DNA of 64,000 bases from a virus. Under the pieces are notes generated by a model that ran no database searches, was not told where the DNA came from, and saw nothing but the letters and a program-made list of their open reading frames with translations. The translations under genes and the position numbers were made by a program. How positions within the stretch are numbered: position 1 is the first letter of the stretch; each line of letters opens with the position of its first letter. The stretch lies in IMG/VR virus record IMGVR_UViG_3300046167_000585, positions 1-64,000 of that record; one strand, 5' to 3'. Positions 241 to 53,350 of the stretch are shown here, in pieces.

Positions 241-3200
241 TTACCATCCTTCTCCTTGTAATATTTCTAATCCTGGAGGTACAACTACTTCTTCAAATAT
301 TTCATCAAAACCACCTAAAGTTGGTAAAAAATTACCAGTAATTATGCTTGAATCTAGGATAGTTTCAATATCTAAACCAAGTAATCCTGTTCCTGTAAAT
401 AACAATCCTGCATTTAATGGTTTTTCTTTTATTAAATTAAATCCAGCACGTTGAATACGAACAAAGTATTTAACAAATAATATTGCTCCTATATCATTTG
501 CATAAGCTACATATCTATTTAAAGGTTGATCGTAGTTAACAAATGTTTCTATCATTGTTTTATATGCTTTATCTTCTGAAATACCTTTTTCTTGTGTTTG
601 ATAGTTGTATAAAGCATATCTAGCTACAAAATCACTTATTTGTAAAAAGTGTTGAGAAGCTTTAAATGCAGCAGTATTTTCTCCAAGATATGCATGATTA
701 GCTACATCAAAAGCTTTTCCTGTTACTAATGATCCAGCTTTTGATTCTTTTAATCTTTTAAATATTTTATTTCTATAAGTAAACTCATCTTGGTTAATAT
801 CTTCTGTAATAGATGTAAATAGACCTTGGTCAATAAATGGTGCTACTTTACTATTATTCATTTTAGCTACTAAAATATCTCTTTTATTTTGAACTTTAGC
901 ATCATTTTGTAATGCAGGAGATGCAGATATACGTATATCTAATAAACGCAATTCTTGAGCTCTTGTTTGATAGTCTACTAGTTCTGTATAAGCTTCTTTC
1001 CAAGATTTTAAAATGTAATCTATAGGTACACCATATAAGAAAGAAGTTACAAAGTTACTTGTAACGTTTACTGCAGGTACAATAGGAATTTTAAGCACAA
1101 TGTTTACTTTAGCCATTGCAACCATTTCTTTTATAAACTTTTCTAAAACTTTTGCATATCTTTGATATTTTGCAGAATTTTTAAAATATGGAATATTAGC
1201 AATTGATGGATTTACATAACCAAATACCGTATCTAACAATTTTCTTTCTATCCAAAATTCTTCTTTTCCAGTTTCTTTATTAACTGATGCGTGATACATT
1301 ACATCATCTTTAGCTTGTTTTGGTAAAGCTGAAAAGTATTCGTCTTGATATCTTCCATTATCTAAAATATTTACAAAGCCAGGCGTATTATCTTTATGGT
1401 TTTTCTTACCATATGAATACAACATTTCAATGGCTTCTCTATTAATCTTTTCTGATTTAATCTTATCCTGTAAATGACTATACATAGTCGGTAATACTTC
1501 ATCAAACATCAAATCTTGCTTTAAATGCTTTTCTGTTAAGCTATGACTTAAAGTAACACGATAATCTACAATATTTAAATCTTCGTCTACAACAGGAATC
1601 ATTACAGGTTTTTGACTTAAAATTCCTTTTCGGCTTTTTTTGTTTTGGCTTCTTTGAAAACCTTCAAACTTAGTCATAATGAAATCAGCATTATCTGGGT
1701 TTCTACTTAACATCTGTTTTTTACTAGTTCCTTTAAATTGCTTTGATGTTAAAGATATAATTCCTTTAGTCCTTGTTAAAACAGGATTGTTGTAAATAAC
1801 GTACAATCCATGTGGTTCTTTAGTATCAGATTCAACATTACCAATGAAAATGTGACCTTCTCTAATTAGTTTAGCTTTAGTATCTGGATCACTTGGCTCT
1901 ACTATTATTTGTGCATCAGGGTCAGTAACTACTGCTATATAACCTTTAGTCATTAATGCAGGGCTTGGTTTACCAGTTCTGTCTAAAAAACCTTCATTTA
2001 AAGAATCATTTTTAAATGCAGTATGTATGTTTAATAAACCTAAAAATGCATTTTCACTAGCAGTAGATTCTTCTGCTGCTAATTCTCTTTCCATCAATTC
2101 ACTTACACTTATTTTTGCATCTTTAAGATTTTCATTACGCAAAGCTAATAATGAAATATAAATATCTAATTCTTGTATTTCTTTTTCACTATTATCACGC
2201 CCATATGCTCTTTTTGATTTCATACCAGTTTTATAAATGTTGTGAGCATTTAGATACTGATTGTAATTAGTCGTTTTACCAGTTAGCATATAGTTTGCTA
2301 GTTGCGATGTTTGTAAACGATAATGCGAGTTTTTGTTAATATTTAAACGTTTGCGATATTTTGTTACTGCTGCATCAAGCTTAGTTTGGTCAGATATTAA
2401 TTCTAATATTTCATCTGTTGTAAAAGCTCCAGTACTAAATAAAACAGATAAATCTGTTTTCATAATAACTCTTGTTATATTTTCTTTTTGTTGTCTATCT
2501 AAATCATCGTATGTAATAAACATTCTTCGTAAAGCAATTTTTGTATCATCTTTATATTGTCTACGATTAGCATCTACTTGGTCATGTGATTTATATAGCA
2601 TCTTAATAAAATTATTTTCTATTCCACCAAATAAATCTGTTTTAATACCAACAAGATTATCTAACCCCATTGGTTTAAAGTTTTTATGTATTACATTTAA
2701 CTTTTCTTGTACTTTAGGATGGTTTTTAACAAACTCTCTATAAGATGATCCAAAATATGCTATTAATTTTGTGTCGTATAGTACATTAGCTAAAAAGTTA
2801 TTAATTTTTCCTTCTCTTGTAAGTCTATCAACCATCTTAATCCAAGCATCACTACCTACTCTAATTCCTCTACTTACTGCTTTTTCTAATAACTTAGCCC
2901 CTTCTTCATTACCTTTATCTAATAATGTACCTAATTTATCTGCTTTTAATGCTCTAGCAATAGAATCTCTTTTAGATTGATTAACAGCAACTATATCTCT
3001 AGTCATTTCAAATATTTGCTGTTCTACATTACTAGGTCGTTTTTTACCAGTTACTGTTCTTACAAGTCTTTCCATTAATTCAGAAACGAGTTGAATCAAT
3101 TTACCAACAAGTTGTTGATTAGGGTCTTTACTCCAAAGCGGAATAACTTGTGAATCCATGCTTTGTAATTTTCTAACTAAAAATTTATTAGTTAATGCAT

Positions 3201-6200
3201 AGGCTAAAAACTCATCTAATTCAGCTTCTGCTGGAGTTTTATCTCCAAATACGTAATCATATTGTGCTTTAGCTGCATCAATTTCTGCTTGTTTATCTGT
3301 TAAGAAAATGATATTACCATTACTATCTTTATTCAAAAAAATCTCATAAGGACGTTTTTCTGATTTTAGTATTTGTTTTTTTACCTGGTTGCGTATGCTT
3401 TCTAACTTTTGTTTATAAGTTGCATCATTACGTAAAGCAAACGCAGTAAGAATATGTATTAGTTCATGTGCGTAAACTTCTTGTGCAGTTTGTTCTGAAT
3501 AAGATTCAGGTCGATATTTGTTATATTTAATTTTTACAGAAGTATCATCAATGTATGCTTCGCCATGTGCTTTAACATTAGCTTTTAATAACGTTAATTC
3601 TGTTTTATCTAATTGAATACCTGCTTTACTAATAATCTCATCAATAACAAGTTGTAAATGACTTTGTTGTATATTTTTATCTTCATTATTTAGATAAGCA
3701 TCTTGACTAATTAGTCCAAGTTTTTCAAAAATAGCTTGTAAATTTTGACGTAAAGAGTTTGTTCTATATACTTCTTCTAATTCTGTTGCAACTATATTAT
3801 CTATAGACCTTAAAATATTGCCATCTGCATCAAAATCAGGTTCTCCTTCATCATAAAGGTCTTTAATTTTGCCAATGTTTTTAAGAGCCATTTGATTTGC
3901 ATGATTTTCTCTAGCAGGACCTTTAGGTCTTTTTTGATTCTCTATACTAAAATGTGCTCTTTCATGTTCAATTACAAAATTAATATACTCTTGTACATTT
4001 TTAAACGTGTCTTCTGGTAATGCGTCAACACCTTCTACTTTAGGTTTAGTCCAAGCTTTTTGAGCATAACCTTCTGTTATTGTAGCAATATCTATATAAA
4101 TTGCACCCAGACCATTCATATCTGTATAACCTGTTTTAGCACCTATAACTCTACCACTACCATTGCTTGCTAATAAAGACCCTTTAGCTTCTTCAACAAT
4201 TACAATTGTTTTAAGTTTATCTTCAGTAAATCCTTTAAAGTCAGGTGCTTCAATGTCATTACTACTAAAAGTAGGTTCTTCAACTTCATTAGCTTTTTCT
4301 TCTTGAGCATTTTTTGCATCTTCTTTAAGAAGATCAAATTGTTTATCTAAAGCTTTAAGAAGGGCATCTAGATTTGTTATTTCTTCTCTCTCTTTTCTTG
4401 TTAAACTAGCGAAATCTTTTTTACGTAAATTAAGTAATCTATTTTTTTCAAACATAAGAGCATCATAAATATCTTGCTCTTCTGATGTTTCAATAACAAT
4501 TTTTTCTCTTGTATCTTCTTCAGTAGTTTCTTCAGTAGTTTCTTCTGCTTTCTCTGTAGTGTCTACACCTTCTTGCTCTTGTGTTGTTGTTTCTTCAGGT
4601 GTAAGAGTTTCATCAACGATAGACTCAGGCATATACATTTGCGAAATTGTCCAATTAGCAATGTTTTGTTGCGTACTTAAGTTAGGGTCTCCATAAGCCT
4701 TAATTAAAGCATTAAGGTTACGTTTTCTAGTTTTAATAGCATTTTTAAGATCTTTAATAATCTTTTCTAAACTCATTTCATTAAGTTCTTTATACAATGC
4801 GTCTTTTTGTTTGTTAACTCTATCTCTAGCTTCTATAGTCTTAGGTTTTATTCTTTCTAATCTTTTTAGTTGTCGTTGTATTTCATCACCTCTAAATGAT
4901 TTTTTTTGAAGTGTTTCAATAAGAGCATCTTCATCAAAATTACCATTTCTATAGTTTTCTAATATTTGCTCATATTGTTCTAAAGACTTTTCTAAAAATA
5001 CGTGATTTAAATTATTGTTTAAAAAAGCTTGATTATAAATTTGAGCATTCTCAATTGCTTGATTAACTGGTGAAATGACTGCATCAAATATTGGTAGCAC
5101 TTCTGGTTTTTGTTCTAATAAATCTGCTAACACAGTAGCATCCATATTTTGAACCATATTAATTACTGCAGATACACCAGGTTCTTTAAAAGTACTAGCC
5201 GTAGTATTTGCACCAATTCTATAAATTTCTTCTAATTCATAAAGCTTACCATTAGCTTGACGCCTTGGTACCCAATCCCCTAATACTTTTCTGTATAACC
5301 GTTCAACAAGAGGTTTAGTTTTTACTTCAACTCTATTTCCATTAGTATCAACAAATCTAATTAATTGAATTAATTTACCTTGATTAGAGCTATCACCCCA
5401 AGGCGCATTTAGTCTAGGCATAAAAGAATCAGCCAAGTCTGCTGCTATTCTCATCTTAACGTCTATGTCAGTTACACCTGTACCTAAATCTCCAATTGCT
5501 TGTTCATAAGCTTGCATAAACATAAAGAATTCAGCTTCGACTGATCTTACAATGCTATCTCTACTTTCTACTATTGGTGCTAGTAATTCTTCTAAAGCAC
5601 TTTCAAATATTTTTTTAGGGTGTGCTTTTCCTTCATGATAATAAATATTATAAAAGTAAGCTTGAAATTCTTGTAGTTCTAATGGTTTCTTTTCAGTTCC
5701 TACTGTAAAACTAAAACCATAAAGATTATTACTGATTTCTACATCAGTATCTTTATCTTTTGTAGTACCTGTTTTATCTAATCTTTCAACCAGTTTTATA
5801 GGTTTTTTAAGTACATCATTGATAGCATTTTCAATTATTTGTACCTCTTCTTTAATTTTTAATTTTTCTTCTGCATTAGCATTATCATATGCTGTTTGAT
5901 GTTTACCTAAAGTATCATACAAATCAGGTGCTATAGATTCTACAACATTTCTAATAACTTTAAGTATTCCTGCTCCATAGTTACTAATCATAACTGGAGT
6001 TTTTGCTAAATCTCTAGCAAACTTAGTTAATGCGTTTTCATTATCTAATAACTCACCATGTAAAACTTTTACAGCATTCTGTTGTGTAGCACTAAAACCG
6101 TTAGGGCTATTAACGGTCACTTTTTTCATTATTTTATTAACTATGTTTCTACTAAAAGCTTGATATACATCATCTTTATTACTGTTAATAAATTTTTCAT

Positions 6201-6474
6201 AAGTAGCTTTCGCTTCTTTTTTACTAACAAATACTCCTACTCTTTCTAATGCTTCTTTTAATTTAGTAGGATTTTTAGTTTTCTTGTCTAAGTTTCCACC
6301 TAAGAATTGTAATAAACCGATTGCATAACCGTTGGTTATGCCATCGGTCTCAATACCAATACTAGTAGTAAATCCTCCATCAGGTTTATAAACAGATAAA
6401 GCAACTAAAGCCTCTAATACATGCGCACTTGCACCACCATTAGTTAATACATCTTCTTGCATTAACTTTTTCAT
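241..6474 (-). CDS. vRNAP fragment 3: catalytic core and C-terminal ejection region
   Basis: This is the longest intact piece (2077 residues from an internal Met). The true frame continues upstream without a stop to about 6960. It starts just before motif A and contains motifs A, B and C in its first 470 residues. Motif C has Phe where most relatives have His before the catalytic Asp. Downstream is a long charged, helical region with Glu/Thr-rich low complexity (around 4490-4600). Two HExxH motifs follow: HERAH at 3952-3966 and HELIH at 3454-3468. The last 600 residues are globular-looking and of unknown function. In N4 the C-terminal third is required for packaging the polymerase into the virion. 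The internal Met is not a real start: there is no ribosome site, and the conserved polymerase sequence runs through it. Confidence 0.85.
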   Translation of the reverse strand: MKKLMQEDVLTNGGASAHVLEALVALSVYKPDGGFTTSIGIETDGITNGYAIGLLQFLGGNLDKKTKNPTKLKEALERVGVFVSKKEAKATYEKFINSNKDDVYQAFSRNIVNKIMKKVTVNSPNGFSATQQNAVKVLHGELLDNENALTKFARDLAKTPVMISNYGAGILKVIRNVVESIAPDLYDTLGKHQTAYDNANAEEKLKIKEEVQIIENAINDVLKKPIKLVERLDKTGTTKDKDTDVEISNNLYGFSFTVGTEKKPLELQEFQAYFYNIYYHEGKAHPKKIFESALEELLAPIVESRDSIVRSVEAEFFMFMQAYEQAIGDLGTGVTDIDVKMRIAADLADSFMPRLNAPWGDSSNQGKLIQLIRFVDTNGNRVEVKTKPLVERLYRKVLGDWVPRRQANGKLYELEEIYRIGANTTASTFKEPGVSAVINMVQNMDATVLADLLEQKPEVLPIFDAVISPVNQAIENAQIYNQAFLNNNLNHVFLEKSLEQYEQILENYRNGNFDEDALIETLQKKSFRGDEIQRQLKRLERIKPKTIEARDRVNKQKDALYKELNEMSLEKIIKDLKNAIKTRKRNLNALIKAYGDPNLSTQQNIANWTISQMYMPESIVDETLTPEETTTQEQEGVDTTEKAEETTEETTEEDTREKIVIETSEEQDIYDALMFEKNRLLNLRKKDFASLTRKEREEITNLDALLKALDKQFDLLKEDAKNAQEEKANEVEEPTFSSNDIEAPDFKGFTEDKLKTIVIVEEAKGSLLASNGSGRVIGAKTGYTDMNGLGAIYIDIATITEGYAQKAWTKPKVEGVDALPEDTFKNVQEYINFVIEHERAHFSIENQKRPKGPARENHANQMALKNIGKIKDLYDEGEPDFDADGNILRSIDNIVATELEEVYRTNSLRQNLQAIFEKLGLISQDAYLNNEDKNIQQSHLQLVIDEIISKAGIQLDKTELTLLKANVKAHGEAYIDDTSVKIKYNKYRPESYSEQTAQEVYAHELIHILTAFALRNDATYKQKLESIRNQVKKQILKSEKRPYEIFLNKDSNGNIIFLTDKQAEIDAAKAQYDYVFGDKTPAEAELDEFLAYALTNKFLVRKLQSMDSQVIPLWSKDPNQQLVGKLIQLVSELMERLVRTVTGKKRPSNVEQQIFEMTRDIVAVNQSKRDSIARALKADKLGTLLDKGNEEGAKLLEKAVSRGIRVGSDAWIKMVDRLTREGKINNFLANVLYDTKLIAYFGSSYREFVKNHPKVQEKLNVIHKNFKPMGLDNLVGIKTDLFGGIENNFIKMLYKSHDQVDANRRQYKDDTKIALRRMFITYDDLDRQQKENITRVIMKTDLSVLFSTGAFTTDEILELISDQTKLDAAVTKYRKRLNINKNSHYRLQTSQLANYMLTGKTTNYNQYLNAHNIYKTGMKSKRAYGRDNSEKEIQELDIYISLLALRNENLKDAKISVSELMERELAAEESTASENAFLGLLNIHTAFKNDSLNEGFLDRTGKPSPALMTKGYIAVVTDPDAQIIVEPSDPDTKAKLIREGHIFIGNVESDTKEPHGLYVIYNNPVLTRTKGIISLTSKQFKGTSKKQMLSRNPDNADFIMTKFEGFQRSQNKKSRKGILSQKPVMIPVVDEDLNIVDYRVTLSHSLTEKHLKQDLMFDEVLPTMYSHLQDKIKSEKINREAIEMLYSYGKKNHKDNTPGFVNILDNGRYQDEYFSALPKQAKDDVMYHASVNKETGKEEFWIERKLLDTVFGYVNPSIANIPYFKNSAKYQRYAKVLEKFIKEMVAMAKVNIVLKIPIVPAVNVTSNFVTSFLYGVPIDYILKSWKEAYTELVDYQTRAQELRLLDIRISASPALQNDAKVQNKRDILVAKMNNSKVAPFIDQGLFTSITEDINQDEFTYRNKIFKRLKESKAGSLVTGKAFDVANHAYLGENTAAFKASQHFLQISDFVARYALYNYQTQEKGISEDKAYKTMIETFVNYDQPLNRYVAYANDIGAILFVKYFVRIQRAGFNLIKEKPLNAGLLFTGTGLLGLDIETILDSSIITGNFLPTLGGFDEIFEEVVVPPGLEILQGEGW

Positions 6475-9400
6475 AGATTTATTTAATGCTTTCTTATTGT
6501 TTAAGTTACTAATAACTTCTTTAACTATTTCGTTGTTATTAATTAACTCAAAAGTTTCTCTACCTTCTTTTAGAGTTTTAATGTTATAACCAAATGCTTG
6601 TACTACTGCTAACTTAAATACTTCTAAATCAGATTTAGATTCTATTTTAGATTCTGTACCTGCAGGATTAAACAGAGCTCTATGAATTTTGCTACGTTGC
6701 CCATTAATAGTATTACTTACAATACGTAATCTATGTTGTACTTGTGCTTTATATTTAAAATAGAATCCTGTATTACCATTACCTCGTGCTAGATAGTCTC
6801 TAACATGTTGAAGGTCTTGTAGTTTTTCTCTATTAGCAGCTTTAACAGCGTCTTTACTTAAATCATGTTGTGCTTCTTCATCTTTTACGCCTACTAAATC
6901 TTCTAATACATCATCATTTAGTAAACTAAATATTTTTAATTCGTCTTGTTTACCTATCCACTTTTACTTTTTGTAGCTTTGCCATTAAAGCTTGTGTACG
7001 TGTATTTATAGTAAAGAAGCTATCATCTGTTGTTTCTTGTACTTCTTCTACAGGTTTATCATAAGTATCTCTTAAAATAGTTTCTGCACCTTTAATAACC
7101 TTAAGGTTTTCACTATTTTCTTTAAAAACTTCTAAAACAGGATTATCTTGTATGTAAACAGTATTCCAATCTAAACTTTCCTTAGCTCGTTTACCTTCTT
7201 CTGCTTCAAAATTAAAATTAGGATTTTCGCTTAGTAAGGTTAGATCATATTCACCTCTTGCTAATTCAATTAAGCCATTTTCAACATCAACATCACCGTC
7301 TGTTTTAGCTTCAATAAATCTAGCAGTTTGAATTGATAGTAATCCTAAAGCAGTAGCTAGCCTAGGTTGTAAATTAGTTCTTTTAACTAAAGGACGTTTA
7401 AATACTTTGTTTTTAATATTTTGTAATCCAAGTATAAAATCACTTTCAGTAGGACGTTGCACAGAAATATTTAATAAATCTAATATTTCAACACCAATTT
7501 CTTTAGCTGCATCTTTTACAAAAATACCTGAATTGCCAAAAGTTGCATAATGTTCTTTACGCAAACGTCTAGTTTGTTTAGCATCTCCAAATACTAGTTC
7601 TGCTATAGCAAAAGCAGGTCTAAACTCGCTTTTCTTTTGATTAATGCCACTCCAATGCATCATAGATATCAACATTGCAAATATTACATCATCAGGCATA
7701 TTGCCATCTTGATCTAATAATAATTTAACTTCTCTAACAGCTAAAACACCTTCAGCTTTTTCTTGTCTAGTTAAACCAAGATTAATATTTTCTTGAAATA
7801 TTTTTTTAAATTCATCAAATCTACTTGCTAGTGCTTCAATATACGCAGTATCTTTAACACCTAATTTAATTAGCTTAATTCTAATTTTATCGCCAGTTAA
7901 TGTTTTATCTTCATTTTCAGAAAAGAAAGATTTACGAGTTACATCTCTAATCTTAAATAAATCATTAACTTTTAAAGATGAATCTTTTAACGAATTAAAT
8001 GTGCCTTCAAATTTATTTAATATATTGTTAGCTATTCTTTTATTTCTAGTTTCTTTTTTAACTTTTCTAGCTTCTTTTAAATTTACTTTAGCTTCTTCTA
8101 ACTTTAATTGTAAATTTTCTATTTCAACTCTTCGAGCAAGATTTCCTCTTTGTTTTTCTAAACCTTTTTAATCGGTTTATTTCTGCTTTAATATCTTTTA
8201 TCGATGTTTTTAATTCTGTTTCAGCTTCAGTAAACTGTTCACGTTCACGTGTACGTCTTTGTTTTGTTTCTTCTTTTGTTTCTTGAGGCTTTTGAGTTTC
8301 TTCTTTAACATCTACAACTTCTTCTTCAACTACTTCTTCTTTAGGTTTTTTAGGTGCTTGCTGAGTACCAGCTTTAACATCATCTAAGTTACCTGTAGTC
8401 TCTTGAGCTCTTTTAGCAATTTCTGCTTTTCTTGCTTTATTTCTAGCTTGTACTTCCTCTGCAAGACGTTTACTAGCAGTTTCATCAATATTTTTAATAA
8501 TGTTATCAATTAGCTCATTTATGTTTTCGACATAAATTGCTTCAGTTTTTACTAATCTAACAAGTTTAGGGCTTCTACCATCAATAAAAAAGTAATCTTT
8601 TTTCTTATGTCCTTTAGGTAATTCACTTTCATTTTTAAATATTTTGTAAGTTTTTTTATCAATAAAAACAGTTACTTTTGTTTTTTGATGAATTTCATAT
8701 GCTTTATCAAATTTTTTACTTTTTTCTAATAGTATTTTAACGAAATTAGCTAATTGCTTTTTTTGCTTACCTTTTAATATATTATTTTCAGCATCTTTTA
8801 GATATGTTTCAATACCTCTAAATCTAGTTCCTTCTCCAGTAAGAATTTCGTTATGTACAATTTTTAAAGTTTTCTTAACAGCAGCATCTGTTGCTGAATT
8901 AATAATTGTTTGTGTATTTTTGTAAGCTTTTGCAATTTTTTCTCTAAGCTTAACATTTTGCTTTTCAGTTTCATTTAAACCTTTTTTATCGATATTACTA
9001 CCTTTATTAAGACTATTAAGATTTAAAGAATTTAAAACTCTACCTGTTGGCTTAATAGGTTTAGTAGCAGCACCTGCAGATTGTTCTGTGCTATCTTTTT
9101 TAGGTTTAGCTTTAGGTTTAGGCTTAGCTGCAGTTTCTTCTTCTACAATCTCATCTGCAAACTCTTTTTCTAAAACTTTTCTAAGTACAATAAATTTTCT
9201 ACGTTGTTCAATAAGATTAGCTTTAACAACTTTATCTGTTGTTGCATTAATATCATTATTTAAAGTTCTTGTAGCTTCCCACAACTCATCATAAGCATCT
9301 AATACTTCTTCTTCTGCTTTATTAAGTTCATTTATGTCAGGGTCTTTTTTATTTTTTATTTTTTCATATTCTTCATATTTTTTAGTAGTTAGAACAATTA

Positions 9401-11873
9401 AAGTATCAACTTCTTTTTTAGTTTTTGACTTTACAACTTTGTTTTTAAATTCAAAACTATTTAAAGTTTTTTCAATTTGTGTAACAACGCCTTTAGGTAA
9501 TAAAGGTAAACGATTACCTGTATTATCTTTAGATATGTTATCAATTTGAATACCTAATTGATTACGCTCATTTTCTAAACGTTTTCTTTTTCTTGCTGAA
9601 ACATTACCTTTTAAAATTTTGTTTATAGCGTTAATACGTTTAGTAGAATCTCCAATAACTTCTCTAATTACGCTTTGACCTTTTCTTTGACCTTCTCTAA
9701 CTTTGCTGCCAATAGTTCTATCAATACGTCCAGCTGCATTCTTGTTTGCTTTAGCTATACGTTCATCAAGACGTTTTTTAATAGCTTTAATTTGTTTATT
9801 CTTTTCTTTTTGCGCAACAGTTTTTTTATCTTTAACTTTTTGAATATCAATTTCAGCTTGCTTATTTAGATTAGCAATTTTTTGATCTCTTTTAGTGTTT
9901 ACTAAATCACTAATAGTATTTTCACTAGTAGTAGCAGAACCTGTATTTAAATTAGTTAATACTTCTTCTATTGCTTTATTTGCTTCAACTACATTATTAA
10001 AAGAACTATCACGGTCTTTAACAGGTAAATTTCTTTGGTCAACTTCAATTTGATTTAATTGTCCTGCTAAATCTAAAGCTTTATCTAAATTTCCACCTTT
10101 TTGATAAGTTTCATCTAAATTAAGTCCTAAAGCTTCTGCTTCGCTTTCAAGAGTCAATACTGCTGATTCTAGAGCTTCTTCTGTTGTATTGTAGCCACTA
10201 CCAGTAACGTACTCATTTTTAAGCTCAGAAGCCTTTTCTCTAATCTCTTGAATGCTTTCTCTTACAGCTCCTCTATCACCTCTAATTCTATTAGCTAATT
10301 CTGAACCTGTTTGAACTGTACTGCTTAATGCACCACCAGGTACTAATCCTGCTACAAATGAATTTAAAATTCCTGATATAAATTCTTCTGCTAAATACTC
10401 AGGTAAATGTCCTTCTTTAATCCAATCTTGTGTAGTTTCTTCAATAATGAACTGTAAAGCTTCAGTCGTGCCTTCAGTAAGACCTCCTATTGACATCTCT
10501 TTACCAACATTTTTAATGTTTTGACCAAGATTACGTTTTCTAGTAGACTTTTTAAGTGTTTCCTTAGCAGCTTTTGTATTTAAACCAAATTTATTAAGTA
10601 ATCTAGCTGGGTAAATTAATTCTAAGCCAGCTGCTGCAGTACCACCTAATAATGCAAAACCTTGTGCTCTAGCATCTCTTTCTCCTGCATTACCAACATC
10701 ACCGTAGATACCACCAACTTCCATTACTTCAGCACCTGCAAAAGCTCCAAGAATTCTACTTCTGTTAACACGTTTACCTAATAACTGTCTAGTGTTATTA
10801 CTTACGCCATCTTTAAAAGTTTCTTTTATGCCTTTCTTTATTGCAGATTTAGCAATTAAGCCTGTTATGCCTCCAGTACCCATCATTAATGCTATTGATG
10901 GCATTGCTTCACCAATTAAAGCGCCTAATTTAGATAAAGTTTGTCCTGGGTTAGTAAACCAATCTATTTCTTCAACTTTAGGTAATGTTTCTCCTCTAAG
11001 TTGTGCTGAATTTATTTCACGTAAATATTGTTTTAAAAACCAACTACCTAATTCTTCATCTCCTGATGCATCTACTATTAAAGCAGCAAATCCATAGCCT
11101 GTAGCTTGTACATTATCAATTCCTTTTTGTAACCCTATTTGTGCTTCTTTCCAAAAACCTTTACCTTGTTTTTTAAATTCACCTTTTTCCCAAGCTTGAA
11201 GCTCATTAACTGCTTCTCTCCAAGCTTTATTATTATAGTTACTTAAGTAAGCAGCATTATTTTCAGGAGTATTAATAACTTCATTAATAATTTCACTTGT
11301 TTCAGGATTACGTATAGTAATTAAATCTCTACCAAAATATCCTACACCATCTTTACGAATGTCTAATTTAACAGTATCACTTTCAAGGTCTTGACCTTTA
11401 TAAAGCAATTGTTTAAAATTTTCAGCTTGTTTAGCTGCTTCTTCGTTTAACATTCCTTGAGTTACGTAACTTCTATCAGGTAACCCCATTCGTTTAGCTA
11501 AAGAAGTACGATGTAAATCCCACTTTTTACTTCTTTTACTTCCATCTATTGGTTCTTCCTTGCCAAGATATGGCAATAAAGCTTTAGTTACAGGATCATA
11601 CTTTGCTGTTTCGTAAGCATCAAATGTGAAACCAGGTTCTGTATTTAATCTACCAAAACCATATAAAGTATCAGCATCAAAATCTTGACCTAAATTAACA
11701 TCAAAAGTTTGAAATTCATTAGTTAAGTTATAAAGATTTTCTGTTTTTTGTTGTGATAGTATTCCTAGCTCAGCTTGCTTTTTTGCTACTAAGTTTGTAA
11801 AACTATTTTCGTTATTCTCGTCTTGAGCTCTTGCTAGAATTTCTGCAAAATTACTCTGAGGTAAAGTTGCCAT
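241..11873 (-). CDS. giant N4-type virion RNA polymerase, interrupted by two frame errors
   Basis: Read as one gene this encodes about 3876 residues (N4 gp50 is about 3500). In N4 this protein is packaged in the virion, ejected with the DNA and transcribes early genes. Catalytic motifs of the T7-family fold lie in the middle: motif A with Asp at about residue 1843 (ETDGITNG), motif B with Lys 1957 and Tyr 1965 (RDLAKTPVMISNYG), and motif C with Asp 2263 (LPIFDAVIS). A-to-B spacing is 114 and A-to-C is 420, against 111 and 392 in N4. The frame breaks at a five-base run 8165-8169 and a four-base run 6962-6965. Removing one base at each restores one uninterrupted frame. The gene ends the late operon, as expected for a late-made ejected protein. 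Confidence 0.9.
6950..7699 (-). CDS. vRNAP fragment 2: N-terminal part of polymerase domain
   Basis: This is the middle piece. Its open frame actually begins at the frame break near 8165 and ends at a TAA (6950) created by the second break. The sequence is not like T7 polymerase at residue level but occupies the position of the N-terminal domain that reads the promoter hairpin in N4 vRNAP. Between this stop and the next fragment's Met the corrected frame stays open. It contains QVQHRLR near 6730-6750, about where the T/DxxGR motif should be, with the Arg retained and the Gly replaced. It is not an independent gene. Confidence 0.75.
   Translation of the reverse strand: MPDDVIFAMLISMMHWSGINQKKSEFRPAFAIAELVFGDAKQTRRLRKEHYATFGNSGIFVKDAAKEIGVEILDLLNISVQRPTESDFILGLQNIKNKVFKRPLVKRTNLQPRLATALGLLSIQTARFIEAKTDGDVDVENGLIELARGEYDLTLLSENPNFNFEAEEGKRAKESLDWNTVYIQDNPVLEVFKENSENLKVIKGAETILRDTYDKPVEEVQETTDDSFFTINTRTQALMAKLQKVKVDR
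8124..11873 (-). CDS. vRNAP fragment 1: N-terminal ejection region
   Basis: This 1249-residue piece starts at the only credible start of the whole gene (MATLPQSNF). That ATG sits one base from the stop of the upstream 426-aa gene. The first 300 residues are globular. A hydrophobic, glycine- and alanine-rich stretch follows at about residues 310-420 (EAMPSIALMMG, FALLGGTAAAG), probably membrane-active. Residues 500-1249 are highly charged coiled-coil with Lys- and Glu-rich runs. This layout fits a protein that is threaded through a portal and helps cross the cell envelope. The last 20 residues are read in the wrong frame after the break at 8165-8169. Confidence 0.85.
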   Translation of the reverse strand: MATLPQSNFAEILARAQDENNENSFTNLVAKKQAELGILSQQKTENLYNLTNEFQTFDVNLGQDFDADTLYGFGRLNTEPGFTFDAYETAKYDPVTKALLPYLGKEEPIDGSKRSKKWDLHRTSLAKRMGLPDRSYVTQGMLNEEAAKQAENFKQLLYKGQDLESDTVKLDIRKDGVGYFGRDLITIRNPETSEIINEVINTPENNAAYLSNYNNKAWREAVNELQAWEKGEFKKQGKGFWKEAQIGLQKGIDNVQATGYGFAALIVDASGDEELGSWFLKQYLREINSAQLRGETLPKVEEIDWFTNPGQTLSKLGALIGEAMPSIALMMGTGGITGLIAKSAIKKGIKETFKDGVSNNTRQLLGKRVNRSRILGAFAGAEVMEVGGIYGDVGNAGERDARAQGFALLGGTAAAGLELIYPARLLNKFGLNTKAAKETLKKSTRKRNLGQNIKNVGKEMSIGGLTEGTTEALQFIIEETTQDWIKEGHLPEYLAEEFISGILNSFVAGLVPGGALSSTVQTGSELANRIRGDRGAVRESIQEIREKASELKNEYVTGSGYNTTEEALESAVLTLESEAEALGLNLDETYQKGGNLDKALDLAGQLNQIEVDQRNLPVKDRDSSFNNVVEANKAIEEVLTNLNTGSATTSENTISDLVNTKRDQKIANLNKQAEIDIQKVKDKKTVAQKEKNKQIKAIKKRLDERIAKANKNAAGRIDRTIGSKVREGQRKGQSVIREVIGDSTKRINAINKILKGNVSARKRKRLENERNQLGIQIDNISKDNTGNRLPLLPKGVVTQIEKTLNSFEFKNKVVKSKTKKEVDTLIVLTTKKYEEYEKIKNKKDPDINELNKAEEEVLDAYDELWEATRTLNNDINATTDKVVKANLIEQRRKFIVLRKVLEKEFADEIVEEETAAKPKPKAKPKKDSTEQSAGAATKPIKPTGRVLNSLNLNSLNKGSNIDKKGLNETEKQNVKLREKIAKAYKNTQTIINSATDAAVKKTLKIVHNEILTGEGTRFRGIETYLKDAENNILKGKQKKQLANFVKILLEKSKKFDKAYEIHQKTKVTVFIDKKTYKIFKNESELPKGHKKKDYFFIDGRSPKLVRLVKTEAIYVENINELIDNIIKNIDETASKRLAEEVQARNKARKAEIAKRAQETTGNLDDVKAGTQQAPKKPKEEVVEEEVVDVKEETQKPQETKEETKQRRTREREQFTEAETELKTSIKDIKAEINRLKRFRKTKRKSCSKS

Positions 11874-13154
11874 TTACTTTCTTGTTGCAATTTCTAATTG
11901 TCTAAATAATTCTTTTTGTGTTTCAGTTCGATCTTCTACAGGTATCAATATGAGTTCACCTAGTTTTGCTATTTTATCTATTTCATTTGGCATACTTTGT
12001 AATATTGATTGCACTTCACTTTGTACAGCTTTACTTACTGTAACTACATCGTTATCGTCATCGTCATCATTATTTTTAATATAAGTTTCTAATAACTCTT
12101 TAGTTAAAGCAGAACTTGTTCGTTGATTTGGTTCAAGACTTTTAAAGAAATCTATAAATTCATTTGTATCTTTAGTGCTTGGTAAATCAATCTGGTCAAG
12201 TAAATCAGGAAATTTTTCTCTAGCTGCATCATACATTTCACCAAATGCAGTGCCTTCAGCAGCATCATCTACAGTAAACTTACCTGCAGCAGCTTCCATT
12301 GCTGCATATAATCTGTCAGCTTTTTCATCAGTAAATGTACCTAATGCAACATTTTCATTTGTTATTGGATCAGTAAAGTACCATTGATCTACTACTTCAT
12401 CACTAAAAGTAATACCACCACGTACAACAAAGTCATTAAAGTCTTTAATATCATGACCTTTACTTAATTTATTAGCACCAAATTGTCTTGCCCATGAACT
12501 TAAATTGTCTAAATCGTTTTGCCCCATTGCGGCACCACTTGGATTAAGTTTACTAAACAACCCAGTTTCAGCAAAACCATACTTATCTTTAAGAAAATCA
12601 GTAGGGTCATCACCATAGTTTTTATATAAATTTTTTCGGTCTTTTTCTGCTTCTAATCTTTGTTCTTCGTCAAATTCTGCTTTTTTAGCAGCAGCTAATA
12701 ATTCAGCTCTTTTTGAATAAATCTCATCTTCCATTTTTTGATTAAATATAAGATCTGTAGCTTTTTGTTCATTGTATGCAGTTTTTTCAGCTGCTTGAGT
12801 TTTTTTAAGTTGGTCTTCCCAAAGTTCTGCAGCTCTTTTTTCTTCATCTAATGTAATTGCTAAATCTCTTTCAGGTTGTCCTAATTCATAATTCGTAGCA
12901 TTAACAGTAGACATGTCTAACCAAGAAGGATTTGCAAGTGATATTAAGTTATCACGTTGAGCTTGATTGTCTGCTTGCATTAAACTGTTAACAAAATCTG
13001 CAGTTTCAGCTTCTGTTTTATTTTCACTAAAATCAGTTATAGCTTTTTGAATACCTTCACCTGCATTACCAATATTTGCTGAAGCTCTAGTTAATGCACT
13101 GTAAAGCGGTGCATTGTTCATAGGTTTCATATCTGTCCATCTTACTGCGCCCAT
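11874..13154 (-). CDS. probable internal virion (ejection) protein
   Basis: This 426-residue protein (MGAVRWTDM) has a good ribosome site (AGGAG, 8 bases before ATG). It is mostly charged and helical, with a strong coiled-coil region at about residues 90-160 and an acidic run of aspartates near 365-372. No catalytic motif was recognised. It lies directly upstream of the vRNAP with no intergenic space and downstream of a 220-aa gene. N4 has small virion genes in the same place between the capsid genes and gp50, so a role in packaging or ejection with the vRNAP is likely but inferred from position only. Confidence 0.7.
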   Translation of the reverse strand: MGAVRWTDMKPMNNAPLYSALTRASANIGNAGEGIQKAITDFSENKTEAETADFVNSLMQADNQAQRDNLISLANPSWLDMSTVNATNYELGQPERDLAITLDEEKRAAELWEDQLKKTQAAEKTAYNEQKATDLIFNQKMEDEIYSKRAELLAAAKKAEFDEEQRLEAEKDRKNLYKNYGDDPTDFLKDKYGFAETGLFSKLNPSGAAMGQNDLDNLSSWARQFGANKLSKGHDIKDFNDFVVRGGITFSDEVVDQWYFTDPITNENVALGTFTDEKADRLYAAMEAAAGKFTVDDAAEGTAFGEMYDAAREKFPDLLDQIDLPSTKDTNEFIDFFKSLEPNQRTSSALTKELLETYIKNNDDDDDNDVVTVSKAVQSEVQSILQSMPNEIDKIAKLGELILIPVEDRTETQKELFRQLEIATRK

Positions 13155-13163
13155 AACAATCTC

Positions 13164-13826
13164 CTAAACAACGTAATTAGCTAATGTCATATTATTAGCA
13201 TTTCTCCAAGCATTTCTATCTGTAATTAAATTATTAGCTAGAGTTTTCTTTGTATCGCGTTCTTGTTGATAACGCATTCTATTATCAGCAAGCTCTTGTT
13301 CTATTAGTCCAATATTTTTTAAAGCAGCCCAACCTTCCATAGCACTACCAACACCTCCTGCTAAAGCAGCTAATGTATTTGCAGTTTCTCTATTAAAGTA
13401 TTTATCCATAAAGCCACCATCTTTATTGTTAAGACCGTCTCTATATAAATTAGCAAATCGTTCATTTTCGTCAAGCATTCCTTGAGCAGGGTTTCCTCTG
13501 TTTTTACCACCTGCAAGTGTATAACCTCTTGCATCATAGACAGTATTCATAGGACCTTGAGGTAACGTTGTAGTACCAGTAGGAGATCTCATTATGTCAT
13601 ACATATTACGACTACCTAAACTGTTATCATTCATACGTGAATATGAAGTAACTTTAGGAACTGTTAATCCACCTAAGTTTTGAAAAGAACTCATTGCACT
13701 AGCTTTAGTTCCTGTAGAGTCTCTATCTTGACCTATTAAATTATTACCATAACTATTAAGAGGTAATAAAGTTTCATCATCATAGTATTCAGTTACACCG
13801 TTTACTACTCTAGCTTTGATTGCCAT
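13164..13826 (-). CDS. probable minor virion protein
   Basis: This 220-residue protein (MAIKARVVNG) follows the ribosome site GGAG. The N-terminal half is rich in Gly, Asn, Ser and Tyr with little regular structure. Residues 150-175 are alanine- and glycine-rich (TANTLAALAGGVGSAMEG), and the C-terminus is a short charged coiled coil (QQERDTKKTLANN). This resembles small phage proteins found next to ejection proteins. No family was recognised with confidence. It sits between the 1024-aa glycine-rich protein (75-base gap) and the 426-aa protein. Confidence 0.65.
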   Translation of the reverse strand: MAIKARVVNGVTEYYDDETLLPLNSYGNNLIGQDRDSTGTKASAMSSFQNLGGLTVPKVTSYSRMNDNSLGSRNMYDIMRSPTGTTTLPQGPMNTVYDARGYTLAGGKNRGNPAQGMLDENERFANLYRDGLNNKDGGFMDKYFNRETANTLAALAGGVGSAMEGWAALKNIGLIEQELADNRMRYQQERDTKKTLANNLITDRNAWRNANNMTLANYVV

Positions 13827-24230: not shown

Positions 24231-24737
24231 TCAAAGTTTACTTCTATTTAACAATGGATCATTAATAATAGCATCGTTGTATTTACTATCCATTGCATTA
24301 GAATGATCTACTTTTTTCATGTTTTCTTCATGTTGTCTGTTAACTCCAGATTCTTGTTCAACAAAAGTTAGATCATCTAAATCAGCTTTACTATTAATAC
24401 TTCTAGACTTAGATAGTTCAGTTTGAGTTTTAGCTTTCTTAAATTCTACATCTACTGCGTTTTCTTGCGCTTTAGCTGTTTCGTTAGCTATTTGAGCTTG
24501 TAATAGTTGCATTTCAAGTTGTGCTTTTTGTTCAGCCATTGGATTAGGTTGTGGCTGATATTCTTTAATTTGTTTAGCTAAGTCAGGCATTTTACGTAAT
24601 CTAGCTATATCTGCTAATATTAATTGAGACATTGCTGGGTCCATATTATTACCCATTGTTTGTAACATAAATGATAGCTCTTGTGCTTTTTCGTTGTCAG
24701 CTTCAGCTGTAGATATATTTAATTTAATATCATACAT
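24231..24737 (-). CDS. portal fragment 5 (C-terminus)
   Basis: The corrected frame reads [17 protein letters not shown] before this Met. The piece is a long Gln/Ala/Lys-rich helical tail ([19 protein letters not shown]) ending [10 protein letters not shown], as in N4-like portals whose C-termini form an extended barrel. Confidence 0.65.
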   Translation of the reverse strand: MYDIKLNISTAEADNEKAQELSFMLQTMGNNMDPAMSQLILADIARLRKMPDLAKQIKEYQPQPNPMAEQKAQLEMQLLQAQIANETAKAQENAVDVEFKKAKTQTELSKSRSINSKADLDDLTFVEQESGVNRQHEENMKKVDHSNAMDSKYNDAIINDPLLNRSKL

Positions 24738-26370
24738 ACCACCTAAATCTTCACGATTAATAGCAACAAACTCTTCGTTAGTTACTCTTATTATCTCTTC
24801 AGTCAGATAAAAACTCAGAATTCATAGATATTATTTTGCGTCCTATTTGATTAATACCATCTGCTAATCTTCTAAGTATTCCTAACTCACGTTTAGATGC
24901 TGCATCTAATGCACTTCTAATACCTGTAGCTGTATTACCTAACGCTGAGCCACTAATACCACTATTAAATGCTTTAACACCTGTTAATGATTCAGCTTCG
25001 TTGTTTTGAAGATTTAACATGTTTAATGCACTATTAGGTATTTCAGGATACGTATCCATGTGAAATGCTTGTCTAGGGGTCTACATTAGAATTAAACTTA
25101 TAATCTGCACCTTGTTCAAACTTACGAGCATTTGTAACATCTAAAGCATCTTTACGAATACCCATTTGTCCATTAGCAGACCTACCAATAATATCAATCA
25201 TGCCTCGTGTTACAGCACCAATAATCTTTTGGTTATCTTCTAATAATGCACCATCTGGTTCACCGTAAATGTGTTTACGTACAGGTAAGTACTGAACTGA
25301 TACAAATGGTAGTTTTTTATCAGGAAATGGGTTAGACTCCATTCTAATTAATACATCACCTACCCAAGTAGCAATAAATGGTTCTACTTCACCAGTATCG
25401 TTAATATCCCAGTAGCCCCAATATTCATAAACAATTATCTTTTTTACGTGGGTCGTCTTTAAACTTAAAGTTTGTTTCATCTTCTAAGTTATGGTCTGGT
25501 TGTGCTAATGGTGCAGCATTCTCTAATATAACATGTTCTAAATTTGAGTATCTACCGTCTTTTTTAAGTTCAGCCATAGATGTTTCAAAACTGTAAATAA
25601 TAAAGTTAGCTTTATCTAAATTACCTAAACAAGTTGGATCAATAATTACATTGTTATAATCACATACTTCTAATTCTGGTTGATTTTTAATAACATTAAT
25701 TTGTTCTTCTATACGAGTACCATTAGGTACAGGCATCATTGGCACACCGTTTGCCATTGTTAATTCATGTGCTTCTTGTATTTCAGGAGGAGTTTCTTTT
25801 TTATAAGCATCAGGATTTTGTTCCATCATTTGATGTAATTGTTCATGCATTTGAGCTGATTCAACAGATTCTACAAAATTCAAATACAGGAACTTCTACT
25901 TCTACAATTTCATCTTCATATTCCCATCCAACTTTAACTATTACTGTTCCTTCATCTACAGCAGTACGGACGTATTCATCAATAAATGCAGTTTTGTCTA
26001 TCTTACAATTGATTTGATAATTAAGTAACAATCCATTTTGTATAGCAGACTCTTTATCTTCAAATGTCATTGGGGCTGTATTAAATAAATCATCTGTAGA
26101 TAAAAATGGTTCACTTAACGCAGCATAACGCCATTCAGCTTGTTTTCTAATAAGTTTAGGAACAATTTTTGATCTGCCTTTCTTATTGTTAATTGTTTGT
26201 TCACCATTTAAAGCATCTATCCAACCATCAACATCTAATACATGTGACGTGTGAGAAGATTGAGCTTCATCGTAATCAGCTTTAAGTTCTAATAAATCAG
26301 GTGGATTTTTCCAATCTACAAGCTTTTTTGGTTCACTTAAATCTACATCTAAATCATGCTGTTTTGCCAT
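24231..26370 (-). CDS. N4-type portal protein, interrupted by four frame errors
   Basis: Five overlapping or adjoining frames read as one protein of about 711 residues (N4 portal gp59 is 763). The breaks are at homopolymers 25875-25878, 25440-25445, 25076-25079 and 24809-24813, and removing one base from each gives a continuous frame. The order of regions fits a portal: N-terminal wing ([21 protein letters not shown]), stem-region helices, a crown with [12 protein letters not shown], and a long helical C-terminus rich in Gln, Ala and Lys. It lies upstream of the scaffold and capsid, as in N4. The separate pieces should not be read as different genes. Confidence 0.85.
24799..25059 (-). CDS. 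portal fragment 4
   Basis: Helical crown region following VDPRQAFHM in the corrected frame, with [20 protein letters not shown] and a conserved [12 protein letters not shown] end. A break at 24809-24813 separates it from the C-terminal piece. Confidence 0.65.
25073..25480 (-). CDS. portal fragment 3
   Basis: This continues [18 protein letters not shown] in the corrected frame. It includes [20 protein letters not shown] and [20 protein letters not shown], the most conserved-looking part of the portal. It stops in a tag created at 25076-25079. Confidence 0.65.
25425..25883 (-). CDS. portal fragment 2
   Basis: This continues [13 protein letters not shown] in the corrected frame. It carries a mixed helical and beta region ([20 protein letters not shown]) and ends in wrong-frame DNCL after the break at 25440-25445. 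The internal Met is not a real start. Confidence 0.65.
25861..26370 (-). CDS. portal fragment 1 (N-terminus)
   Basis: Residues 1-169 of the portal from the true start ([10 protein letters not shown]). It contains the segment [20 protein letters not shown], typical of N4-type portals, and ends in a wrong-frame FCRIC after the break at 25875-25878. Confidence 0.7.
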   Translation of the reverse strand: MAKQHDLDVDLSEPKKLVDWKNPPDLLELKADYDEAQSSHTSHVLDVDGWIDALNGEQTINNKKGRSKIVPKLIRKQAEWRYAALSEPFLSTDDLFNTAPMTFEDKESAIQNGLLLNYQINCKIDKTAFIDEYVRTAVDEGTVIVKVGWEYEDEIVEVEVPVFEFCRIC

Positions 26371-48667: not shown

Positions 48668-50449
48668 ATGAATATTCAATTACACAACGAGTTAGAATAC
48701 TCAAAGAGAATGCGTAACAATCTAATACTCAACGATGTATTAGACGAAATACCTACAAAAATTACAGAAGCACTGACTATAGCTATTAATAGTTATAGAT
48801 CAGGTAGTTATTATCAATCTAAACAAGATAGAATAAATAACCTTCCTAATACTGTAGAGATAGTAACTAATATACTTGCTATTATTCTATCTTCTAATCG
48901 TCCAAAACCTATCCAAGGCGTAGCTACTGAACTAGGTTTTACTTTAGGCTATCGGAATCAAATTAGTGCTGTCAAAACAGGTGCTGAAATATTATCAATA
49001 TGTCACGGTAAATTGTATGATATACAATTGAATAATGATAGTACTGAAATAGTACCTAAATACAAGTTAACAACTGATACAGTTGATAAAATAAATGTAT
49101 TACAATATTTACCACCAATGCTACAGAAACCTAATGATTGGATATCCAATACAGACGGTGGATGGCTATGGGAGCGTAAATCTATCATTCTAGGCAAAGG
49201 CACTCATCACAATAAGCCTCAAGCTTATGATGCACTCAACTTATTACAATCAGTTGCTTGGACAATAGATATACCAACCTATACTAACTTTGTTAATACT
49301 AATGAAGCTATGGACAATGACCAATTTGAGCGTGTAGTACGCGATTACTTTGGTAAACCATTCTATTTCGTATGGCGTTATGACAAACGAGGTAGATCAT
49401 ACTCATCAGGTTACGACTTAAATGTCCAATCTAACGAGTATGGTAAAGCATTACTATCATTATTTAACAAACAGGTAGTAACTAACCTGGATAACCTAAA
49501 GATTGCTATTGCTGGTCATGCTGGTCATGATAAATTAACATGGTCAGAGCGTATCAATTGGTTTAATCAACAATTAAACTTTAATATTGATACATTTGAC
49601 GAACCAATACTAGGTTCTAAAGCAATACAAGCATATCTAGACAGTAAGAAAGGTATTGCTACAGGTTATACAATGAGTATTGACGCTACTGCATCAGGTT
49701 TACAGGTAATGTCAGCATTATCAGGTTGTAAAGTAACTGCTAAAGCATGTAATATGGTCAATACAGGTAACAGAGAAGATATTTATCAGTTTGTTACAGA
49801 CAAAATGAATAAACTATTGAAACCTGCAGATCAAGTTACACGCAGTGATGTCAAGAAACCTGTTATGACTACATTCTATAACTCAGAAGCTAATCCTAAA
49901 GAAACATTCACAGAGCCTCAATTAGAAGCATTCTACGCATCGTTAGACGATACATTACCAGGTGCGTTAGATGTTATGGATGCTATTAATGAGTTCTGGG
50001 ATTTTGACTCTGATGTACACATGTGGACATTACCAGATGGTCATGTAGCTAAAGTACCAGTTACTGAAATGACTAATATCCGTATTGAAGTTGATGAGCT
50101 TAATCATCGTACATTCACATACAGATATAACAAACAACAACCTTCTGAGAACTACAGAAGTTTAGTTGCTAATATAGTACATAGTGTTGATGGCTATGTA
50201 GCTAGAGAAATGGTTAGACGATGCCATGCTATGAAAATCGAACTTGTCCATATCCATGATTGTTTTGTATTTAGTCCTAATTACCTTCAAATAGTGTGTC
50301 AAACATACAGAGAAATATTAGCTGAAATTGCTAATAGTGACTTGTTATCTGACATTCTTAGTGAAATTAGTGGTAAATATGTACCTGTTACTAAACATTC
50401 TACTGATTTAGCTAAAGAAATTCTAAACAGCCAATATATGCTGTCATAA
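48668..50449 (+). CDS. single-chain T7-family RNA polymerase (N4 RNAPII-like)
   Basis: This 593-residue polymerase has all four signature motifs: DxxGR at about residue 240 (DKRGRSYS), motif A at 338 (SIDATASGLQVMSAL), motif B at about 392-405 (RSDVKKPVMTTFYNSEA) and motif C at 529 (HIHDCFVFS). It is far shorter than T7 polymerase (883), missing most of the N-terminal domain. N4 RNAPII, by contrast, is two subunits of 269 and 404 residues. It likely transcribes the replication genes. Its start has GGAG 6 bases upstream and lies 28 bases after a terminator. Confidence 0.92.
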   Translation: MNIQLHNELEYSKRMRNNLILNDVLDEIPTKITEALTIAINSYRSGSYYQSKQDRINNLPNTVEIVTNILAIILSSNRPKPIQGVATELGFTLGYRNQISAVKTGAEILSICHGKLYDIQLNNDSTEIVPKYKLTTDTVDKINVLQYLPPMLQKPNDWISNTDGGWLWERKSIILGKGTHHNKPQAYDALNLLQSVAWTIDIPTYTNFVNTNEAMDNDQFERVVRDYFGKPFYFVWRYDKRGRSYSSGYDLNVQSNEYGKALLSLFNKQVVTNLDNLKIAIAGHAGHDKLTWSERINWFNQQLNFNIDTFDEPILGSKAIQAYLDSKKGIATGYTMSIDATASGLQVMSALSGCKVTAKACNMVNTGNREDIYQFVTDKMNKLLKPADQVTRSDVKKPVMTTFYNSEANPKETFTEPQLEAFYASLDDTLPGALDVMDAINEFWDFDSDVHMWTLPDGHVAKVPVTEMTNIRIEVDELNHRTFTYRYNKQQPSENYRSLVANIVHSVDGYVAREMVRRCHAMKIELVHIHDCFVFSPNYLQIVCQTYREILAEIANSDLLSDILSEISGKYVPVTKHSTDLAKEILNSQYMLS

Positions 50450-50524: not shown

Positions 50525-50539
50525 CCGTTCTCCGAACGG
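50525..50539 (+). promoter_or_regulatory. candidate N4-type hairpin promoter for the replication operon
   Basis: CCGTTC (50525-50530), TCC loop, GAACGG (50534-50539): a perfect six-base stem with a three-base loop, followed by TTCTTTAAA. N4 vRNAP promoters P2 and P3, read on the non-template strand, are five-base stems with TCC loops followed by TTTT. The match in loop, stem size and downstream T-run is close; the GG at the N4 start site is missing. It could instead be a second terminator. Confidence 0.45.
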
Positions 50540-53152: not shown

Positions 53153-53350
53153 GTGGGACAAATGAAAGCATACGCTGAGTGGGCAAAAGACAAAGGCTAC
53201 TTAAATGACAACTATGAACCTACTAATCCAAACGCTAATAGCATGGATTATGTAGATGAGTTTGTAAAAATACGTGATAAACAACGTAGTTCAAATATGG
53301 CTTCCAGCCATTTAACTAACTTTATTAATAAACCCAAGGAGACAACATGA
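53153..53350 (+). CDS. small protein with GTG start
   Basis: The start is GTG at 53153 with AGGAG 6 bases upstream. The 65-residue product (GQMKAYAEWAKDKGYLNDNY) is acidic and partly disordered. Its stop overlaps the next start (ATGA). Unknown function. Confidence 0.55.
   Translation: MGQMKAYAEWAKDKGYLNDNYEPTNPNANSMDYVDEFVKIRDKQRSSNMASSHLTNFINKPKETT

What the first reader, a model, noticed from the sequence alone, without database searches (positions are those of the whole stretch)
241..11873. Giant N4-type virion RNA polymerase split only by two homopolymer errors
Three apparently separate frames restore to one gene of about 3876 residues whose motif A, B and C residues (D1843, K1957/Y1965, D2263) fall at N4 spacing. 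Motif C is FDA rather than HD, and the T/DxxGR position reads QVQHR. This makes the phage an N4 relative with an unusually diverged promoter-recognition part.
Basis: partly seen in the sequence, partly recalled or inferred. Interest (0 to 1): 0.75.

Follow-up and report, generated by a model that had tools for sequence, protein, structure and literature searches.

The report
N4-type virion RNA polymerase, frame-broken record
The window carries the giant RNA polymerase that N4-like phages pack in the virion and inject with their DNA; the gene looks broken only because this sequence record has frame errors, and its supposedly odd motifs are normal for its family.

Summary
Confirmed: three minus-strand frames (8127-11873, 6953-8167, 244-6963) are pieces of one N4-type virion RNA polymerase (vRNAP) gene. 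They lie end to end on an intact 3986-aa relative. A profile of the catalytic part hits the solved N4 mini-vRNAP (E 5.5e-33), and the named residues match N4 D559, K670, Y678 and D951. Portal, primase and DNA polymerase genes of this record are broken too, while the nearest relative has them whole. All eight break zones hold a homopolymer run, so sequencing error is by far the best reading.

Not supported: "FDA rather than HD" is ordinary (N4 itself has FDG). QxQHR is a clade trait at a variable position. N4's promoter-contacting residues vary across all N4-like phages, so nothing marks this one as unusually diverged.

Beyond the finding: all 56 vRNAP frames that reach the region carry an HExxH metallopeptidase motif at one of two alternative positions. 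A variable slot beside it holds a second HExxH module here, an SF1 helicase in one relative, AlkB plus SF1 helicase in another. Most unusual, this clade has the two N4 RNAPII subunits fused in one chain, against the published rule for vRNAP phages.

The parts
8127..11873 (-). vRNAP piece f1: N-terminal part, 1249 aa
   Evidence: Collinear with residues 22-1233 of the intact L019 vRNAP at 38% identity; no Pfam hit
6953..8167 (-). vRNAP piece f2: 405 aa stop to stop, matching the N-terminal half of N4 mini-vRNAP
   Evidence: phrog_2206 E 2.1e-13; profile-profile with known vRNAPs E 2.6e-27; L019 1237-1622
244..6963 (-). vRNAP piece f3: palm/fingers with motifs A, B, C, variable slot, HExxH domain and C-terminal domain, 2240 aa
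   Evidence: phrog_2206 E 1.6e-273; PDB N4 vRNAP E 2.9e-36; catalytic-part profile A5 to 2po4 E 5.5e-33
8120..8175 (-). first frame break (f1/f2)
   Evidence: Frames overlap here; two runs of five identical bases; L019 reads through
6945..6970 (-). second frame break (f2/f3)
   Evidence: Frames overlap by 11 bases; one run of four; L019 reads through
6730..6744 (-). DxxGR/TxxGR-equivalent motif, QVQHR (f3 R78 = N4 R424)
6343..6345 (-). motif A catalytic Asp (f3 D207 = N4 D559), in ETDGITNG
   Evidence: invariant in 30 aligned vRNAPs
5977..6003 (-). motif B, K...Y (f3 K321/Y329 = N4 K670/Y678)
5083..5085 (-). motif C catalytic Asp (f3 D627 = N4 D951), in IFDAV
3862..4314 (-). module in the variable slot with a second HExxH (HERAH, bases 3952-3966)
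   Evidence: Homologous to segments that lie N-terminal of the polymerase in L025, L029 and L037; predicted model poor (pLDDT 64)
3064..3846 (-). metallopeptidase-like domain with the invariant HExxH (HELIH, bases 3454-3468)
   Evidence: Invariant in 14 relatives; model pLDDT 86, Z 9.4 to N4 vRNAP 2374-2580 and Z 6-7 to lethal-factor-type metallopeptidases
244..3063 (-). large C-terminal domain (N4 C2-like)
   Evidence: 60% identity with L019, about 23% with N4, JA-1 and PT15-A5
48668..50449 (+). fused RNAPII: N4 gp15- and gp16-like subunits in one 593-aa chain (context, not part of the vRNAP gene)
   Evidence: phrog_2166 on 3-215 and phrog_2051 on 270-521; same fusion in four relatives
50525..50539 (+). 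candidate vRNAP promoter hairpin CCGTTC-TCC-GAACGG
   Evidence: Conserved in G001 and G004
53297..53311 (+). candidate vRNAP promoter hairpin ATGGCT-TCC-AGCCAT
   Evidence: Conserved in G001 and G004

Best explanation
The locus is the virion RNA polymerase gene of an uncultured N4-like (Schitoviridae-type) phage, about 3.9 thousand codons in one reading frame in nature, shown here in three frames because the sequence record contains small indel errors. As in N4, the protein should be packed in the capsid and ejected with the DNA through the N-terminal part; the central T7-like polymerase then transcribes early genes from DNA-hairpin promoters; the C-terminal region serves packaging and regulation. 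Shown here: homology and collinearity along the whole protein, all catalytic residues, the HExxH domain, intact relatives, and a full N4-type gene set in the same record. Inferred from N4: packaging, ejection, hairpin-promoter use, regulation. Inferred only weakly: that the HExxH domain is an active peptidase.
For: PHROG vRNAP E 1.6e-273 and 2.1e-13; PDB N4 vRNAP E 2.9e-36; profile A5 to mini-vRNAP 2po4 E 5.5e-33; 468 phage records match, the best-scoring being annotated N4-like vRNAPs; catalytic residues one-to-one with N4 R424, D559, K670, Y678, D951; intact single frames of 3986, 4016, 3803 and 4064 aa and at least 4459 aa in relatives, f1-f2-f3 abutting on L019; portal in five frames, primase and DNA polymerase in two each in this record but single-frame in the nearest relative G001; a homopolymer run of at least 4 in all eight break zones; MCP, tape measure, TerL, RNAPII, DNA polymerase, primase, exonuclease and ATPase of N4 type in the same record.
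Against: No reads could be seen, so sequencing error is inferred from relatives. Runs of 4 or more are common in this AT-rich sequence (16.6 per kb), so their presence at breaks is supportive but not proof. L020 and L027, from other records, also show a broken or split vRNAP, so real splits cannot be wholly excluded in the clade.
Confidence: 0.94

Rival explanations
1. The breaks are real: the gene is expressed as three proteins or joined by programmed frameshifting.
For: L027 has its vRNAP in two abutting frames of 1080 and 2417 aa, so a natural split may exist elsewhere in the family.
Against: The two break points fall inside conserved, collinear sequence, with no domain boundary and no start codon near the second piece's beginning; intact relatives read through; six unrelated breaks in portal, primase and polymerase genes show the record itself is faulty.
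Confidence: 0.04
2. A decaying (pseudogenised) phage genome carrying real frame mutations.
For: Eight breaks spread over essential genes.
Against: The pieces remain fully open between breaks and conserved at 38-60% (vRNAP) with all catalytic residues; the RNAPII protein is 93% identical to the relative's and intact; the late region near 45.5-46.6 kb is 92.6% identical in DNA; no integrase-family match in the record.
Confidence: 0.03
3. A different kind of T7-like RNA polymerase, only convergent with N4 vRNAP.
For: Only about 20-25% identity to cultured vRNAPs.
Against: Homology extends through the N-terminal half of the polymerase domain and the 1100-aa C-terminal domain, with the same neighbours as N4.
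Confidence: 0.01

Closest known systems
Escherichia phage N4 virion RNA polymerase (gp50; PDB 2po4, 9pnr)
   Same: Order of parts (N-terminal part, T7-like RNAP, HExxH-type domain, large C-terminal domain), all catalytic residues, genome position, single gene
   Different: About 20-25% identity; longer; the intact HExxH is at the second of two positions instead of the first; extra HERAH module in the slot
IMG/VR relatives L019 (G001), L020, L021, L022 (G004), L023, L025 (G007), L030
   Same: Same clade, 31-61% identity in the C-terminal domain, QxQHR or QxQGR, second-position HExxH
   Different: Gene intact in most; slot content differs (SF1 helicase in L021; AlkB plus SF1 helicase in L022; another HExxH module in L019)
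Cultured marine Schitoviridae vRNAPs (Alteromonas phage PT15-A5, Vibrio phage JA-1, Pseudoalteromonas phage pYD6-A)
   Same: HExxH at the second position, about 1060 residues from the C-terminus; 23-25% identity
   Different: Shorter, no second HExxH motif
Polyvalent proteins (Iyer et al. 2017, PMC5512222)
   Same: Injected multi-domain protein in which N4-like RNAP is almost always fused to zincin-like metallopeptidase domains
   Different: The fusions listed there in the passages I read are ART, lysozyme and PBECR; SF1 helicase, AlkB and NADAR next to vRNAP were found here in relatives

Membership tests
N4-type virion RNA polymerase | Catalytic residues R424, D559, K670, Y678, D951 at N4 spacing | tested here: met
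N4-type virion RNA polymerase | Fold relation of the catalytic domain to N4 mini-vRNAP, by sequence profile | tested here: met
   A5 to 2po4 E 5.5e-33; f2 E 2.6e-27
N4-type virion RNA polymerase | Large N- and C-terminal parts around the polymerase in one gene | tested here: met
   Collinear with intact L019; C-terminal homology to N4
N4-type virion RNA polymerase | HExxH domain between RNAP and C-terminal domain | tested here: met
   HELIH at f3 1166; invariant in the clade; model matches N4 2374-2580
N4-type virion RNA polymerase | Present in the virion and ejected into the host | not testable with these tools
   needs virion proteomics
N4-type virion RNA polymerase | Transcription from ssDNA hairpin promoters | tested here: inconclusive
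   Conserved TCC-triloop hairpins like N4 P2/P3, but none found upstream of RNAPII in this record
Schitoviridae (N4-like phages) | Core gene set: vRNAP, RNAPII, MCP, portal, TerL, DNA polymerase, primase, gp44-like ATPase | tested here: met
Schitoviridae (N4-like phages) | RNAPII as two separate subunits (gp15, gp16) | tested here: not met
   One 593-aa chain here and in four relatives; this is a common trait of known members, not a formal criterion

The most novel reading that the evidence does not exclude
This uncultured branch of N4-like phages departs from the N4 paradigm in two ways. Its middle polymerase RNAPII is a single fused chain although a vRNAP is present. Its vRNAP is an injected multi-enzyme carrier whose slot between polymerase and C-terminal domain is re-loaded with different enzymes (second HExxH module, SF1 helicase, AlkB plus helicase). 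A duplicated peptidase-like domain always keeps at least one intact HExxH copy at one of two positions, which would mean that the peptidase activity, perhaps self-processing after ejection, is essential.
Probability: 0.35. Interest if true: 0.6.

Novelty: new member of a known kind. Interest (0 to 1): 0.4.

Why it matters
For the finding as given, it adds a distant member of the N4 vRNAP family and shows that its apparent oddities are a broken record plus ordinary family variation. The wider comparison matters more. It makes it testable whether the HExxH domain of vRNAPs is needed, because every member keeps one copy at one of two positions. It also gives a vRNAP-bearing clade with a single-chain RNAPII, whereas a published survey (PMC4496689) found vRNAP and heterodimeric RNAPII always together.

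Tried and rejected
The search for related loci with the single 2240-aa protein found nothing; an alignment with three cultured vRNAPs found 79 loci. PF00589 (integrase) and PF03237 searches of the record were empty, although TerL is present by PHROGs and BLAST. The HERAH module gave no Pfam hit, no match in phage records and only a poor model without PDB matches, so its peptidase nature rests on the motif alone. Foldseek alone gave no significant match for the HELIH domain; the second aligner did (Z 9.4, moderate). Transfer of N4 promoter-contacting residues K114, R119 and W129 failed because they are not conserved across cultured members. Programmed frameshifting was considered and rejected.

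Full report
What the window is. The window is bases 1-64000 of a 67,309-base virus record, AT-rich, with the gene set and order of an N4-like phage. On the minus strand it has vRNAP, gp53-like, MCP, tape measure, portal, tail and terminase genes. On the plus strand it has RNAPII, helicase, ATPase, HNH-type, DNA polymerase, exonuclease, primase and gp44-like ATPase genes. TerL is 52-57% identical to N4, JA-1 and PT15-A5.

The observation. Three minus-strand frames of 1249, 405 (stop to stop) and 2240 aa overlap slightly at 8127-8167 and 6953-6963. f2 and f3 hit the PHROG vRNAP family (E 2.1e-13 and 1.6e-273) and f3 hits the N4 vRNAP chains in the PDB. A profile of the catalytic part of this clade hits the solved N4 mini-vRNAP 2po4 at 5.5e-33.

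One gene. In relatives from IMG/VR the gene is a single frame: 3986 aa in L019, 4016 in L030, 3803 in L025, 4064 in L026, and at least 4459 in L021, L023 and L024. On L019 the three pieces abut without gap.

Why the record is broken. N4, JA-1 and PT15-A5 portal proteins match this record in five successive frames, and PT15-A5 primase and DNA polymerase in two each. In the nearest relative G001 the portal, primase and polymerase are each in one frame. All eight break zones contain a run of at least four identical bases, though such runs are common here. I therefore read the breaks as errors of the record. I corrected nothing and searched the pieces apart.

Motifs. The alignment of 30 vRNAPs places f3 R78, D207, K321 and D627 on N4 R424, D559, K670 and D951; the tyrosine Y329 falls on Y678. 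Motif C is FDG in N4, Ea9-2, C121, SP-076 and the roseophages, FDA in this record, L021, L023, L033 and V1169, YDA or HDA in others. FDA is therefore ordinary. The glycine of TxxGR is replaced by H, Q, N, F, T or L in many members; only the arginine is kept (lysine in D265). The H is a clade trait. N4's loop-contacting residues K114, R119 and W129 (PMC4496689) are not conserved among the cultured members aligned here, although alignment in that region is weak. The claim of an unusually diverged promoter-recognition part is not supported.

Promoter hairpins. A scan for perfect stems of at least six pairs with three-base loops found N4 promoters P2 and P3 (TCC loop on the coding strand) as a positive control. 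In this record the same form occurs at 50525, 53297 and, beyond the window, at record position 66338. All three are conserved in sequence and place in G001 and G004; at 66338 the N4 core GCTCCGC is kept while G004's stem changes on both sides. In the window, TCC or GGA loops occur three times, against a mean of 0.07 and a maximum of 2 in 60 dinucleotide shuffles. I take them as candidate vRNAP promoters. None of this form was found upstream of the RNAPII gene, which is unexplained. In G004 two short ACGC-TCC-GCGT hairpins lie in that region.

HExxH domain. Every vRNAP reading frame that reaches the region, 56 in all with some near-duplicates, has an HExxH motif either 1019-1124 or 1216-1308 residues from the C-terminus. 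In the window it is at the nearer position (HELIH, 3454-3468). The model of that domain (pLDDT 86) aligns best, at Z 9.4, with N4 residues 2374-2580, a stretch where N4 has no HExxH; N4's own HExxH is at 2228. This suggests a duplicated domain in which different lineages keep one or the other copy; it is an inference. The zincin-like domain itself is already known (PMC5512222, PMC8472413, PMC12633501). Activity as a peptidase is not shown anywhere in what I read.

Variable slot. Between the polymerase and the HExxH/C-terminal domains the sequence is not shared. The window has a module with a second HExxH (HERAH) whose homologues lie N-terminal of the polymerase in L025, L029 and L037. L021 has an SF1 helicase. 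L022 has an AlkB-type oxygenase plus a RecD2-like SF1 helicase. One of twelve more distant relatives has helicase domains and one a NADAR domain (the scan does not say whether it is the same protein). The fusions named for N4-like RNAP in the passages of PMC5512222 that I read are ART, lysozyme and PBECR.

Fused RNAPII. The ORF at 48668-50449 carries RNAP1- and RNAP2-like halves with DKRGR, motif A, motif B and HD motif C in one chain. Four relatives that also have a vRNAP share the fusion (93, 85, 68 and 47% identity); in two further relatives, and in the cultured phages fetched, the halves are separate. The five fused proteins form one group (97/94 support); whether fusion is derived or ancestral is not resolved. 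PMC4496689 states that vRNAP-bearing species have heterodimeric RNAPII, with two exceptions in which gp16 itself was split.

Verdict. The breaks are very probably record errors, and the claimed peculiarities are normal family variation. The most interesting material lies around the finding: single-chain RNAPII and the cargo slot of the vRNAP.

Noticed in passing
48668-50449 (+): N4 RNAPII subunits gp15 and gp16 fused in one intact 593-aa chain, shared by four relatives with vRNAP (G001, G004, G007, G010), one supported clade; separate in G013, G014 and the cultured phages fetched.
   Followed up: yes
24309-26343 (-): Portal protein gene in five successive frames (four breaks) in this record; intact in G001.
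   Followed up: yes
61480-61520 and 56650-56690 (+): Frame breaks in the DNA primase and DNA polymerase genes.
   Followed up: yes
L022:3-2282 and L021:2-13381: vRNAP reading frames that carry an SF1 (RecD2-like) helicase, in L022 also an AlkB-type 2OG-Fe(II) oxygenase, between polymerase and C-terminal domain.
   Followed up: partly
alignment A6 (L039-L096 vRNAPs): Among twelve further vRNAPs, one matches SF1 helicase domains and one a NADAR domain.
   Followed up: no
50525-50539, 53297-53311; record position 66338-66352 (L001 6339-6353): TCC-triloop hairpins like N4 promoters P2/P3, conserved in two relatives, the last with compensatory stem changes; none found before the RNAPII gene.
   Followed up: partly
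45245-45265: Nine-base perfect hairpin GAAAACGAT/ATCGTTTTC inside the small-terminase-like gene, stem conserved in G001 and G004 with a different loop in G004.
   Followed up: no
L027:2883-6125 and 6125-13378: vRNAP in two abutting frames (1080 and 2417 aa), the first related to f1: a natural split of the N-terminal part or another frame error.
   Followed up: no
vRNAP versus RNAPII, window and G001: RNAPII is 93% identical to G001's but vRNAP only 38-60%, with unrelated slot content: vRNAP evolves much faster than the middle polymerase.
   Followed up: partly
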